NCBI GenBank assembly: GCA_020048055.1
Contig: JAIFNA010000006.1
Location: 1-64,000, forward strand
Direction of reading: 5' to 3'
Length of the DNA: 64,000 nucleotides
Origin: Arcobacter sp.
GTDB taxonomy: Bacteria > Campylobacterota > Campylobacteria > Campylobacterales > Arcobacteraceae
The translations under genes and the position numbers were made by a program. The notes under the pieces were generated by a model, which saw only the letters and a program-made list of their open reading frames with translations, was not told the DNA's origin and did no database searches. Positions 51,197 through 55,706 of the stretch are shown here, one piece after another (position 1 is the first letter of the stretch; every line of letters begins with the position of its first letter).

Positions 51197-51844
51197 ATGA
51201 AACGAAACAAAAAATATTTTTTAAAACAAATTTCAAACTATGCTATCGTTGGTGGACTTGGCTCTTTGCTTTTAGTTGGCTTTTCTGGCTGTGAACAAAA
51301 AAATGAAAATTCTCAAGGAAGCAAAGAACTTAGCAATCTTAATGAGAAAAAAAATGTCTTTGTTGTAATTGAAAAAGGGAGTGATGGAAGCTACAAAATT
51401 GTAGATGAATTTCCTAGCACAAATACAACTATTGTTTTAAGGGAAAACGGAACTGAACGAATTTTAACAAAAGAAGAGATTGATAAATTAATCAAAGAGG
51501 AAGAGATTAAAATAGATAACAACACCTCTGGACTCACAAACCCATCTGTGAGTAGTGGCGGAATGAGCCTAGGAGAAACTTTATTGGCAAGTGCTGCTGG
51601 TGCTATGCTTGGAGCATATATAGGAAATAAACTATTTAATAATTCAAACTATGAAAATCAAAGAAGAACAAACTATCAATCACCACAAACATATAGTAAA
51701 AGTGTAAATAGTTTTAATAAATCATCAACTCCTTCAAGTGGTTCATCAAGTTCATCAAATAATAATGGAAAAAGTGGTTATTTTAATAATCAAAATAGCA
51801 ATACCCAATCAACATCAAGAAGCTCAAACAGTTTTGGAGGATGA
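51197..51844 (+). CDS. UPF0323 family lipoprotein
   Basis: 215 residues. A basic N-terminus and hydrophobic stretch end in a lipobox-like FSGC (Cys32), so it is probably lipid-anchored. Next comes a small conserved domain (VFVVIEKGSDGSYKIVDEFP, RILTKEEI), a glycine-alanine membrane-like hairpin (LLASAAGAMLGAYIGNKLF) and a long Ser/Asn-rich tail. This matches UPF0323 (Campylobacter Cj0371, H. pylori HP0232). It is one base from the ATP-grasp gene, the same partnership seen for E. coli YgiB-YgiC. Confidence 0.85.
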   Translation: MKRNKKYFLKQISNYAIVGGLGSLLLVGFSGCEQKNENSQGSKELSNLNEKKNVFVVIEKGSDGSYKIVDEFPSTNTTIVLRENGTERILTKEEIDKLIKEEEIKIDNNTSGLTNPSVSSGGMSLGETLLASAAGAMLGAYIGNKLFNNSNYENQRRTNYQSPQTYSKSVNSFNKSSTPSSGSSSSSNNNGKSGYFNNQNSNTQSTSRSSNSFGG

Positions 51845-51845
51845 T

Positions 51846-53027
51846 ATGCAATTAAGAAAATTAAAGCCACTTACAAATAGTTATCTTGAATCAATTGGAT
51901 TTAGTTGGCATACAGATTTAGATAATACACCATATATTGGTGATGAAATTTTAATCTTAGATGAAACAGAAGCAACAAAATATTACGATGCTACAAACGA
52001 ACTTTATGACATGTTTGTAGAAGCAGGTCAATATGTAATAGATAATAATCTGTTTCATGAGCTGGATATACCTTTTAATCTGGTTGAATTAGTAAAAAAG
52101 TCTTGGGTAGATGATGTTCATTGGCATCTTTATGGACGCTTTGATTTAGCAGGCGGAATTGATGGAAAACCTATAAAACTAATCGAATTCAATGCTGATA
52201 CACCAACCTCTTTGTTTGAAACAATGATAATCCAATGGGCATTGTTAAAATACAATAGATATGATGAATCAAGTCAATTTAACTCACTTTATGAGGCCAT
52301 AGGTGATAATTTTAAAAGAATAATAACACTAAATGGAGATATAGAAAAATTTAACGAGTATTACCAAAAACTAAATTGGAAAATACTATTTTCATCTCTA
52401 AGGGAAAATAATGAAGATGAACATACTGTTAAACTTTTACAACATATTGCTAGTGAAGTTGGCTTTTTAACCCATTTTTCTTATGTTGATGATGTTACTT
52501 TTGGCGATGATGGAATTAGTGCAGATGGTGAACTTTATGAGTTTTGGTTTAAACTTATCCCTTGGGAAAATATTGCAATTGAAGAGGGTGAATTAGCTTT
52601 GAGGCTAACAGAGATTGTAGAAAACAAAAAAGGGATTATTTTTAACCCAGCATATACTTTACTGTTCCAAAGCAAAGGAATTATGAAGATTTTATGGGAT
52701 TTATTTCCAAATCACCCCTTGCTACTTGAGACATCATTTGAACCACTAAAAAACAAAAAACAGGTTGAAAAGATGTGTTTTGGGAGAGAGGGTGCAAATG
52801 TTGCTATTATCAATAGCGACAATTCTCTACATTTAAAAACTGATGGTGAATATGAAAATTTCAAACCAATCTACCAAGAATATGTAGATTTTCCACAAGA
52901 TAAAAATGGAAGTTTTTATCAAGCTGGTGTTTTTTATTCATACGAAGCTTGCGGTTTGGGGTTTAGAAAAGGTGGAGAGATATTAAACAATATGTCAAAA
53001 TTTGTAGCACATATGGTGGAAAACTAA
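51846..53027 (+). CDS. Glutathionylspermidine synthase-like ATP-grasp protein (YgiC/YjfC family)
   Basis: 393 residues. The C-terminal synthetase domain of glutathionylspermidine synthase is recognisable: HWHLYGRFDLAGG, KLIEFNADTPTSLFET, LRENNEDEHTVKLL and SFEPLKNKKQVEKMCFGREG. There is no amidase domain. Such stand-alone proteins ligate an amine to a peptide-like acid by inference; no substrate is proven. I choose ATG 51846 with GGAGG five bases upstream; the frame is open further back but only over the lipoprotein gene. Convergent with frdB by a four-base overlap of stop codons. Confidence 0.85.
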   Translation: MQLRKLKPLTNSYLESIGFSWHTDLDNTPYIGDEILILDETEATKYYDATNELYDMFVEAGQYVIDNNLFHELDIPFNLVELVKKSWVDDVHWHLYGRFDLAGGIDGKPIKLIEFNADTPTSLFETMIIQWALLKYNRYDESSQFNSLYEAIGDNFKRIITLNGDIEKFNEYYQKLNWKILFSSLRENNEDEHTVKLLQHIASEVGFLTHFSYVDDVTFGDDGISADGELYEFWFKLIPWENIAIEEGELALRLTEIVENKKGIIFNPAYTLLFQSKGIMKILWDLFPNHPLLLETSFEPLKNKKQVEKMCFGREGANVAIINSDNSLHLKTDGEYENFKPIYQEYVDFPQDKNGSFYQAGVFYSYEACGLGFRKGGEILNNMSKFVAHMVEN

Positions 53028-53737
53028 AATCCGTTAGGATTAAATCCTCCGCCAAAATCACTATCAAAATTCCCAAATGAATTATTAAAAGAGGAAAAAA
53101 GTGGATTTTCATATCCATTTTGAACGCTTAAATTTTGTAGTTTTAAAATATCCCCCTTTATATCAATACTTTGTGGGCAAACAAGATTACAAGCGCCGCA
53201 AAGCGTACAGTCCCAGATACCATTTAATTGAATTGCGTCTAATTTATTTTTACTAACAAGTTCTTTACTATCAGATAAATATCTATAAACTCTTGTAAGG
53301 GCAAATGGTCCTAAAAAATCTCCATTTACACTATATACAGGGCAAGAGCTATAACAACTACTACATAAAATACAACTACTTTCAATTTCTATTTTATCGA
53401 CATCATTTGGAAATATTTTCCCATTTGTACAATTTTCTAAAAATCCATTTGATTTTTTCAGTGTTTCAATAACAGCAGAGTTATCAAATATTAAATCTTT
53501 AACAACTGGTAAATTATTTAAAGGTAAAACCTTATCGTCACAAGCAAAGTTACTTGTACATGCCAATTTTTCAACTCCATTAACTCTTATGGCACATGAA
53601 CCGCAAACGCCACTTTTACAACCATAATCAAACGCTAGAGAGTTATTTAAATTCTCTTTTATAAAAATAAATGCGTCTAGTAAATTCGTTATCTTCTCGT
53701 CAATATCATAAGAATTGTCATTTATTATAAGTTTCAT
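53024..53737 (-). CDS. frdB: Fumarate reductase/succinate dehydrogenase iron-sulfur subunit, extra cluster cysteine
   Basis: 237 residues. The [2Fe-2S] ligands are Cys40, 45, 48 and 60; the [4Fe-4S] set is CILCSSC (122, 125, 128) with Cys187. The third site has Cys132, 177 and 183, plus Cys180 in CTLCGAC where E. coli FrdB has Val. In E. coli that Val-to-Cys change turns the [3Fe-4S] cluster into [4Fe-4S], so this protein probably has two [4Fe-4S] clusters. The C-terminus is a Phe/Asn/Gly-rich tail. frdA ends one base upstream; no membrane-anchor gene is beside them. Confidence 0.85.
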   Translation of the reverse strand: MKLIINDNSYDIDEKITNLLDAFIFIKENLNNSLAFDYGCKSGVCGSCAIRVNGVEKLACTSNFACDDKVLPLNNLPVVKDLIFDNSAVIETLKKSNGFLENCTNGKIFPNDVDKIEIESSCILCSSCYSSCPVYSVNGDFLGPFALTRVYRYLSDSKELVSKNKLDAIQLNGIWDCTLCGACNLVCPQSIDIKGDILKLQNLSVQNGYENPLFSSFNNSFGNFDSDFGGGFNPNGF

Positions 53738-55315
53738 CTACTCACCAATCCTAACATTAAAATTAAAATCTACAATAGTACTATCTTTAAAATTATCATT
53801 TTGGAGAGGAAAATCTGTTCTAAAGTGGGAACCACGACTTTCATCTCTGTTATTTGCACTTACAACAATAGCTTTTGCACAAAAAATCATATTTCTAAAC
53901 TCCAAAAGTTCTTTAAGATTTGTGTTGTAATTTTTTGATTTATCAGAAATACCAAAATTATCGATATTTTCCACCAAAAAATTTACAAAGCTTTGAGCTT
54001 TTAATAAACCATCTCTATCTCTAAATAAACCAACATTTTCAAACATAACTTTTCCAAGTTCTTTTTTATAATGATAAAAATCAATTTTTGGAGTACTTGA
54101 AAACAACTTAGCAATCAAAGCAGTATTGCTTTCAATAGAAGAATTATTTGAAATATCAAACAATTCTCCACTTTTTAGTTTTTCACCCAAAGCTTTTCCA
54201 AAATAAACAATTTCAAGGAGTGAATTACCGCCTAATCTATTTGCACCATGAACTCTGTTTGATGCAGCTTCACCTATTACATAAAGATTATTTAAAGAAG
54301 TTTTAGATTCTTTATTACACTTTAAACCTCCCATTGTATAGTGTGTTGCAGGGGTAATTGGGATTAAATCTTGCTCCATATGTAATGAAGCAAAATTAAA
54401 GATTAATTTATACTCTTGAGGTAAGAGATGTAATATTTTTTCATACCCAAGATGCCTTATATCCAAAAAGACATCTTCATTATTTGATATCTTTTTATAT
54501 ATTTCTCTTGCAACAATATCTCTAGGGAGCAATTCATCAACAAAGCGTTTTTGATCTTTTGTCACCAAGTATCCCCCTTCACCTCTAGCAGATTCACTTA
54601 TCAATGCGAATCTACCTTTTAAGGTCGTTGGATGAAATTGGACAAATTCCATATTTTCTAATTCAACGCCAGCACGAAATCCTGCCATTATCCCATCACT
54701 TGTTGTATCCTTATGATTTGTTGTGTAGTTATAGTAAACTCCGCCATAACCACCGCTAGCTATTACTGTATTATTTGCGCTTATTGTTTTGATAGATGAG
54801 GATCGAAGTTCAAGATAACAAATACCACCAATTGAATTTTCAATTTTTATCAAATCTAAAAGCATAGAGTGTTCTCTAAATTCAATTCCAAGTCCAATAG
54901 CAACATCAAAAAGTGTGTGTAAGATTTTTAAACCTGTGTAGTCAGAGCTATAACAAGCACGATTTTTAGAAGCACCTCCAAGTTTCCGCTGAGCAATCTC
55001 ACCTTTTTTATCTCTACTAAATGGCACGCCAAGAGTATCAAGCCATAAAATTGTTTTTTTTGCATTATTACACATAAGCTCAATTGCATCAATATCACCT
55101 AAACCACCAGATGACTTAATGGTATCTTCAATGTGATATTTTACAAAATCATCACCTTCATCCAAAACACCATTTATTCCACCTTGTGCTTGAGCTGTTT
55201 GACTAGAGGTTATAGATGATTTTGAAATTACAACTACGCTGAGTCCTCGTAATTTAGCACTAATTGCACAACTGAGCGCTGCTCCACCGCCACCCACAAT
55301 AACTAAATCATACAT
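53738..55315 (-). CDS. frdA: Fumarate reductase-like flavoprotein subunit
   Basis: 525 residues of the FrdA/SdhA/NadB family: N-terminal FAD fold (LVIVGGGGAALSCAISA), FVQFHPTTL and ISESARGEGGYL with substrate-binding residues, ELLPRDIVAREI with the catalytic Arg, and THYTMGGL. The covalent-FAD His of FrdA (RSHT) reads Gln39 in TSSQTAQAQGGI, so FAD should be non-covalent. No Tat signal is present, so it is cytoplasmic. Shorter than typical FrdA (about 600) and nearer to L-aspartate oxidase in length, but the adjoining FrdB favours a fumarate reductase. It would reduce fumarate in the reductive TCA cycle. Confidence 0.75.
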   Translation of the reverse strand: MYDLVIVGGGGAALSCAISAKLRGLSVVVISKSSITSSQTAQAQGGINGVLDEGDDFVKYHIEDTIKSSGGLGDIDAIELMCNNAKKTILWLDTLGVPFSRDKKGEIAQRKLGGASKNRACYSSDYTGLKILHTLFDVAIGLGIEFREHSMLLDLIKIENSIGGICYLELRSSSIKTISANNTVIASGGYGGVYYNYTTNHKDTTSDGIMAGFRAGVELENMEFVQFHPTTLKGRFALISESARGEGGYLVTKDQKRFVDELLPRDIVAREIYKKISNNEDVFLDIRHLGYEKILHLLPQEYKLIFNFASLHMEQDLIPITPATHYTMGGLKCNKESKTSLNNLYVIGEAASNRVHGANRLGGNSLLEIVYFGKALGEKLKSGELFDISNNSSIESNTALIAKLFSSTPKIDFYHYKKELGKVMFENVGLFRDRDGLLKAQSFVNFLVENIDNFGISDKSKNYNTNLKELLEFRNMIFCAKAIVVSANNRDESRGSHFRTDFPLQNDNFKDSTIVDFNFNVRIGE

Positions 55316-55316
55316 A

Positions 55317-55706
55317 TTAATTCCAAAATTCTTTTATTTCTGCTAATGAATTCTCTTTATCCTCATCATCTAGCTCAATTTCCAAACCATTTTCACTATT
55401 TAATGTTTTAGCTAAATCTTCTTCAGTGGTTTTATTTTTAACAACGCCTACTTCATCCTTAGTTTGTTTTATAGTTTGCATATTTATTTGTTTTATATTT
55501 TCATTGTCTTTTTTTAATTTCTCATATTCTAAAAATATAGTCTCATATTTATCAAAATCAAGCATCACAAAAGAGGGCTTTCCATCGCGAAGTATCACTG
55601 CTTTTGTAATTTCATTTGTATTTAATTTATCAAATATTTGCTTACTTTGTCTTATTAAACTAGTTGATGAAAACATCTCATTTGATGAATAAAGAAGGTG
55701 ACTCAT
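55317..55706 (-). CDS. Phd/YefM-like antitoxin-domain protein, no toxin partner
   Basis: 129 residues. The first half (STSLIRQSKQIFDKLNTNEI, TKAVILRDGKPSFVMLDFDKYE) matches the Phd/YefM fold used by antitoxins to bind DNA. The second half is Lys/Glu-rich coiled coil with an acidic tail. No toxin gene is adjacent; instead it runs one base ahead of frdA. It may be a repressor of this operon or a recruited antitoxin. Function not shown. Confidence 0.6.
   Translation of the reverse strand: MSHLLYSSNEMFSSTSLIRQSKQIFDKLNTNEITKAVILRDGKPSFVMLDFDKYETIFLEYEKLKKDNENIKQINMQTIKQTKDEVGVVKNKTTEEDLAKTLNSENGLEIELDDEDKENSLAEIKEFWN

What the first reader, a model, noticed from the sequence alone, without database searches (positions are those of the whole stretch)
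53024..55315. FrdA without the covalent-FAD His, FrdB with an extra cluster Cys, no membrane anchor
In FrdA the flavin-attaching His (RSHT) is Gln39 (SSQT). In FrdB, Cys180 sits where E. coli has Val207, the change that converts [3Fe-4S] to [4Fe-4S]. Neither subunit has a Tat signal, and no anchor gene adjoins. In E. coli loss of the covalent flavin weakens succinate oxidation, so this would suit a soluble, one-way fumarate reductase for the reductive TCA cycle in an aclBA organism. L-aspartate oxidase is the main alternative for FrdA.
Basis: partly seen in the sequence, partly recalled or inferred. Interest (0 to 1): 0.7.

Follow-up and report, generated by a model that had tools for sequence, protein, structure and literature searches.

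The report
Soluble two-subunit fumarate reductase, non-covalent flavin
This bacterium and many CO2-fixing relatives carry a second, probably soluble fumarate reductase without the residue that anchors the flavin cofactor, which should make it run mainly one way; the gene pair has been noticed before, but its cofactor-site signature, separate ancestry and spread are pinned down here.

Summary
FrdA has Gln39 where covalent-flavin enzymes have His, and FrdB has a fourth Cys (Cys180) in the third cluster motif. There is no Tat signal, transmembrane segment or anchor gene. Both changes are family traits: Gln in 86 of 89 aligned flavoprotein rows, the extra Cys in 95 of 97 FrdB rows.

FrdA is not L-aspartate oxidase. 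The genome has its own NadB; FrdA lacks NadB's Glu121, keeps every fumarate-site residue, and its model is closest to E. coli FrdA. It forms its own clade (98/100), sister to the covalent-flavin complex II flavoproteins sampled. The genome also encodes a complete type-E SdhABE, so this pair is an extra enzyme.

Presence tracks ATP-citrate lyase across Campylobacterota (61 both, 9 pair only, 14 lyase only, 214 neither), but loosely inside families. A role in the reductive TCA cycle is likely but not exclusive. A cytoplasmic two-subunit enzyme for that cycle was already suggested for Sulfurimonas denitrificans (Sievert 2008, as cited in PMC4674564), and periplasmic MFR shows both molecular traits. 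The electron donor is unknown; no CCG/HdrB partner lies nearby.

The parts
53738..55315 (-). frdA: flavoprotein subunit, 525 aa, fumarate-site residues H228, S240, E241, R265, H325, R360 intact
55199..55201 (-). Gln39 codon (CAA) at the position of the covalent-FAD His
54938..54940 (-). Tyr126 codon, where E. coli FrdA has Lys130 and SdhA has Arg; Tyr in 90 of 92 rows
53024..53737 (-). frdB: iron-sulphur subunit, 237 aa, [2Fe-2S] plus two four-Cys motifs; C-terminal tail GGFNPNGF
53198..53200 (-). Cys180 codon (TGC), extra cluster Cys at E. coli FrdB V207
55317..55706 (-). 129-aa Phd/YefM-like protein with acidic linker and KEFW-type C-terminus, 1 bp before frdA; conserved companion in many Arcobacteraceae
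   Evidence: fold only suggestive; one search found no significant structural match

Best explanation
This is a cytoplasmic, soluble FrdAB fumarate reductase, a second complex II-type enzyme beside the membrane-associated SdhABE. FrdA binds FAD without the covalent link and reduces fumarate at an intact dicarboxylate site. FrdB passes electrons through a [2Fe-2S] and two [4Fe-4S] clusters from a soluble, fairly low-potential donor (a ferredoxin or flavodoxin is the favoured guess) instead of quinol. The lower flavin potential should make succinate oxidation poor, so the enzyme would pull the fumarate-to-succinate step forward when the TCA cycle runs reductively, and serve other cytosolic fumarate removal in relatives without that cycle. 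Shown by sequence: the pair, the residues, the conserved site, the absent anchor, the separate clade, the co-occurrence. Inferred: non-covalent FAD, [4Fe-4S], solubility, direction, donor, physiological role.
For: Gln39 and Cys180 are conserved across the phylum. All catalytic residues are kept in 92 of 92 rows. Own clade apart from NadB (98/100 and 100/100); a window-type + NadB clade is rejected, p-AU 0.010. AlphaFold model pLDDT 92.7, best match E. coli FrdA, Z 56.4 over 523 residues, against 51.5 and 49.7 for L-aspartate oxidases. FrdB directly follows FrdA in 57 of the named loci, and no shared anchor or CCG gene is found. The genome has SdhABE and NadB separately. Co-occurrence with ATP-citrate lyase, Fisher p 9e-40 uncorrected for ancestry. 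Literature: engineered loss of the covalent link lowers the flavin potential by about 90-150 mV (PMC9557727) and abolishes succinate oxidation in E. coli QFR and yeast SQR variants; natural MFR without it shows none (PMC2680327). A cytoplasmic two-subunit enzyme for rTCA was suggested for S. denitrificans (PMC4674564, PMC2628731).
Against: No biochemistry. Within Arcobacteraceae the link to ATP-citrate lyase is weak (17 of 21 with, 21 of 40 without; p 0.05). ATP-citrate-lyase genomes of families f5 and f10 lack the pair. No donor gene is linked. An FrdAB-only complex that takes electrons from ferredoxin is not known to me.
Confidence: 0.6

Rival explanations
1. FrdAB is a reductase of another unsaturated dicarboxylate or a general cytosolic electron sink (fumarate, mesaconate, crotonate), tied to the neighbouring D-2-hydroxyacid dehydrogenase and to amino-acid or redox metabolism and not to CO2 fixation.
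For: A D-2-hydroxyacid dehydrogenase gene lies upstream in 30 of 55 loci. Many Arcobacteraceae without ATP-citrate lyase keep the pair. The C. jejuni enzyme Mfr is described in a reference title as reducing fumarate, mesaconate and crotonate (PMC6682613 reference list).
Against: The window genus lacks the dehydrogenase next to frdAB and its genome has only a distant homologue, 31% identity. Dicarboxylate-site residues equal those of FrdA/SdhA. Strong phylum-wide link with ATP-citrate lyase.
Confidence: 0.2
2. FrdAB docks on SdhE, or exchanges electrons with the SdhABE complex, and is therefore quinone-linked after all.
For: SdhB of the same genome has the same four-Cys third motif (CVKCNECADACP), as expected for type-E partners of SdhE (PMC2680327). 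SdhE is encoded elsewhere in the genome. Most genomes with the pair also have a second complex II FrdB.
Against: Some genomes with the pair have short Wolinella-type FrdB and no long type-E SdhB among the matches. frdAB is never beside sdhE in the loci examined.
Confidence: 0.1
3. FrdA is a divergent L-aspartate oxidase for NAD synthesis.
For: Same superfamily; no covalent His; NCBIfam nadB model scores 370.8 bits.
Against: Below the nadB cut-off of 452.75; NadB Glu121 replaced by Leu/Met/Phe; separate nadB in the genome; separate clade; regular FrdB partner.
Confidence: 0.03

Closest known systems
[quoted passage not shown] 2008 as cited in PMC4674564; PMC2628731)
   Same: Same phylum, frdA and frdB only, suggested to be cytoplasmic and to serve the reductive TCA cycle; Sulfurimonas-labelled loci fetched here hold the same family.
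   Different: I could not read Sievert 2008 and could not confirm by sequence that its genes are this family. The papers I could read do not describe the Gln/Cys signature or the separate clade.
8-methylmenaquinol:fumarate reductase MfrABE (SdhABE of Wolinella succinogenes and Campylobacter jejuni, PMC2680327)
   Same: Non-covalent FAD with the His replaced, extra Cys implying a second [4Fe-4S], fumarate reduction without detectable succinate oxidation.
   Different: MFR is exported by Tat, has SdhE and uses methylmenaquinol. An MFR-like SdhA (L176, from gene features) falls inside the covalent-flavin clade of the tree, so the loss there looks independent.
Thiol:fumarate reductase TfrAB (Methanothermobacter; tfrAB of gammaproteobacterial tubeworm symbionts, PMC6315080)
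   Same: FrdA/FrdB-like pair tied to reductive-TCA gene sets in some bacteria; FrdB matches the first 222 positions of the TfrB model.
   Different: TfrB carries a C-terminal half for thiol oxidation that is absent here; the TfrA score is about half the cut-off (370 against 718). No TfrA was available for the tree.
NADH-dependent soluble fumarate reductase FrdABCDE of Hydrogenobacter thermophilus (from memory)
   Same: Soluble FrdA/FrdB serving the reductive TCA cycle.
   Different: No FrdCDE genes adjoin; only two proteins with CCG domains in the genome, one of them SdhE. Not compared by sequence.
L-aspartate oxidase NadB
   Same: Soluble relative with non-covalent FAD.
   Different: No FrdB partner; has Glu121; separate clade and separate gene in this genome.

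Membership tests
Complex II (SDH/FRD) flavoprotein + iron-sulphur subunits | FAD_binding_2 + Succ_DH_flav_C in A; Fer2_3 + 4Fe-4S dicluster domain in B; adjacent genes | tested here: met
Complex II (SDH/FRD) flavoprotein + iron-sulphur subunits | Dicarboxylate-site residues (E. coli H232, T/S244, E245, R287, H355, R390) | tested here: met
   92 of 92 rows
Complex II (SDH/FRD) flavoprotein + iron-sulphur subunits | Covalent 8-alpha-histidyl FAD (His at E. coli FrdA 44) | tested here: not met
   Gln39. Natural members without it exist (MFR, PMC2680327)
Complex II (SDH/FRD) flavoprotein + iron-sulphur subunits | Membrane anchor (FrdC/D, SdhC/D or SdhE) | tested here: not met
   none adjoining
8-methylmenaquinol:fumarate reductase (MFR) | Tat signal on A and an SdhE subunit in the operon | tested here: not met
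   MFR NCBIfam models far below cut-off
8-methylmenaquinol:fumarate reductase (MFR) | Four-Cys third cluster motif and no covalent His | tested here: met
L-aspartate oxidase (NadB) | Glu121 and NadB-clade placement | tested here: not met
Thiol:fumarate reductase (TfrAB) | CCG-domain half in TfrB | tested here: not met
   237-aa FrdB without CCG
H. thermophilus FrdABCDE | Adjacent FrdC-E subunits and NADH activity | tested here: inconclusive
   no such genes adjoin; activity and sequence of that enzyme not available here
Soluble fumarate reductase with non-covalent FAD | FAD binding mode, cluster type, fumarate reduction without succinate oxidation | not testable with these tools
   needs purified enzyme

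The most novel reading that the evidence does not exclude
The window-type FrdAB is a third deep branch of complex II in which the non-covalent flavin is the ancestral state, not a loss, and it draws on ferredoxin or flavodoxin to drive fumarate reduction in the reductive TCA cycle without quinone.
Probability: 0.25. Interest if true: 0.65.

Novelty: new variant of a known kind. Interest (0 to 1): 0.42.

Why it matters
It separates two jobs that annotation lumps together as frdAB/sdhAB: a quinone-linked complex II and a soluble fumarate reductase in the same cell. If the donor is ferredoxin, the fumarate step of the reductive TCA cycle in Campylobacterota, major CO2 fixers at hydrothermal vents and sulfidic sites, would be independent of the quinone pool, which changes its energy budget. 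The clade also gives a natural test of what covalent flavin does in complex II.

Tried and rejected
NadB: rejected by tree, Glu121 and a separate nadB. TfrB-type or Hdr-type partner: none attached or adjacent; the two CCG proteins of the genome are SdhE and one at C15:19926-20588 that was not examined further. Hidden membrane anchor: small multi-TM neighbours in some Sulfurovum and Sulfurimonas loci were read; they look like a VKOR-thioredoxin protein and a DedA-like protein and are not shared across the family (names by eye). Strict rTCA marker: rejected, since the pair occurs without ATP-citrate lyase and the reverse. Structure of the Phd/YefM-like companion: model confident only in the core (mean pLDDT 63.4), Foldseek without significant match. 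Plasmid collection: best rows about 36% identity, all ordinary SdhA-like. Sievert 2008 is not in the library. TfrA and Hydrogenobacter FrdA could not be fetched, so the root of the tree and the loss-or-ancestral question stay open.

Full report
What was checked. frdA and frdB abut directly, frdA starts 1 bp after a 129-aa gene, and frdB overlaps a convergent gene by 4 bp, so no anchor gene can sit directly downstream. Gln39 and Cys180 were read from DNA and mapped on E. coli FrdA His44 and FrdB Val207.

Conservation. From 19 other Arcobacteraceae genomes and 80 named loci of Campylobacterota, the covalent-His position is Gln in 86 of 89 rows that have a residue; the exceptions are one Gly and two Asn, and one of the Asn rows reads like a NadB. 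In a 43-sequence alignment Gln39 and Tyr126 are invariant. Tyr126 takes the place of Lys130 of E. coli FrdA or Arg of SdhA. The extra Cys is present in 95 of 97 FrdB rows; the set includes two Wolinella-type FrdB, which most likely are the two Leu rows. The dicarboxylate-site residues are kept in 92 of 92 rows. These are constrained family traits, not accidents of this window.

What else the genome has. The 2.0 Mb genome (99.99% complete by the tool's table) encodes a complete type-E SdhABE at C2 with RSHS, the covalent-type His, in SdhA and also a four-Cys third motif in SdhB; a NadB at C2:59508; and a third flavoprotein of this superfamily beside nif genes at C16, without an FrdB. Only two Fer2_3 proteins of this kind exist, so frdAB is one of two FrdB-containing systems.

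Ancestry. In a 46-row maximum-likelihood tree the window type forms a clade (98/100), sister to the classical SdhA/FrdA plus an MFR-like SdhA (99/96); NadB (100/100) and the nif-linked paralogue (97/85) stand apart. The root is a drawing choice. Holding the window type together with NadB is rejected, p-AU 0.010. With NadB as outgroup the non-covalent state could be ancestral, but this is not tested, since TfrA and other soluble enzymes are missing from the tree. A predicted structure (pLDDT 92.7) is closest to E. coli FrdA (Z 56.4, 1.6 A, 523 residues), ahead of L-aspartate oxidases (Z 51.5, 49.7).

Distribution. With an FrdB profile, 298 Campylobacterota genomes split cleanly: 70 score 253-377 bits and the next score is 184. 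The ATP-citrate lyase domain PF16114 was sought in a sample with the same handles: 61 have both, 9 only the pair, 14 only the lyase, 214 neither (weak PF16114 matches above 1e-6 were not counted). The p-value of 9e-40 ignores shared ancestry. Inside Arcobacteraceae the link is weak (17 of 21 with the lyase, 21 of 40 without, p 0.05). All seven genomes of family f5 with the lyase lack the pair; two of them, read by gene content as Nautilia-like, have two SdhA loci of classical type, one with its own SdhB and SdhE. This agrees with the Nautilia profundicola paper, which says that both of its complexes have an anchor subunit, unlike S. denitrificans (PMC2628731). Group codes carry no names, so family names (Arcobacteraceae for f1, Nautiliaceae for f5, Sulfurospirillaceae for f10) are my reading from the matching named loci and gene content.

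Neighbourhood. A D-2-hydroxyacid dehydrogenase lies upstream in 30 of 55 loci with enough upstream sequence, and the Phd/YefM-like gene directly upstream in 18 of 55. The Phd/YefM match is below Pfam's cut-off in all five members scanned, and the fold search was not significant. No conserved anchor, CCG or NADH-module gene is found.

Function. Established biochemistry: covalent attachment raises the flavin potential; engineered non-covalent variants are lower by about 90-150 mV, and soluble relatives with non-covalent FAD only reduce fumarate (PMC9557727). E. coli QFR and yeast SQR variants without the His lose succinate oxidation, and Wolinella MFR, which naturally lacks the His and has the extra-Cys pattern, shows none (PMC2680327). 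Methylmenaquinone, the MFR donor, is at -124 mV (PMC6682613). I infer that the window enzyme is a soluble, mostly one-way fumarate reductase with a low-potential donor.

Verdict. Observation confirmed; interpretation partly supported. Interest is moderate: a clean, testable enzyme variant with a known precedent for each trait and a published suggestion for the role.

Noticed in passing
L010 9121-10761 and 8014-9117 (own genome C16); L188 5760-8534; L191 5657-8416: A third SdhA/NadB-like flavoprotein without the covalent His forms its own clade. In Arcobacteraceae it is paired with an aldo/keto reductase, beside nif genes in the own genome and L188 and next to homologues of the own nif-region regulator genes in L191.
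   Followed up: partly
window 55317-55706 (-): Phd/YefM-like protein with acidic linker and invariant C-terminal FW, 1 bp before frdA, without a toxin gene.
   Followed up: partly
L183 6936-12039: Nautilia-like genome with sdhA-sdhB-sdhE followed by a kinase-like gene and a lone 238-aa FrdB.
   Followed up: no
L055 and L067: Wolinella-type frdCAB lies divergently next to the dehydrogenase-Phd-frdAB cluster.
   Followed up: no
L070 (DYPS01000003.1) and L071 (CAMCYD010000010.1): Public MAG records titled Desulfosporosinus sp. and Helicobacter pylori PMSS1 carry loci that match the window's own genus; the labels look wrong.
   Followed up: no
window 51738-53027 (+): Glutathionylspermidine-synthase-like (GSP_synth) gene whose listed GTG start overlaps the preceding ORF; the true start is probably downstream.
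   Followed up: no
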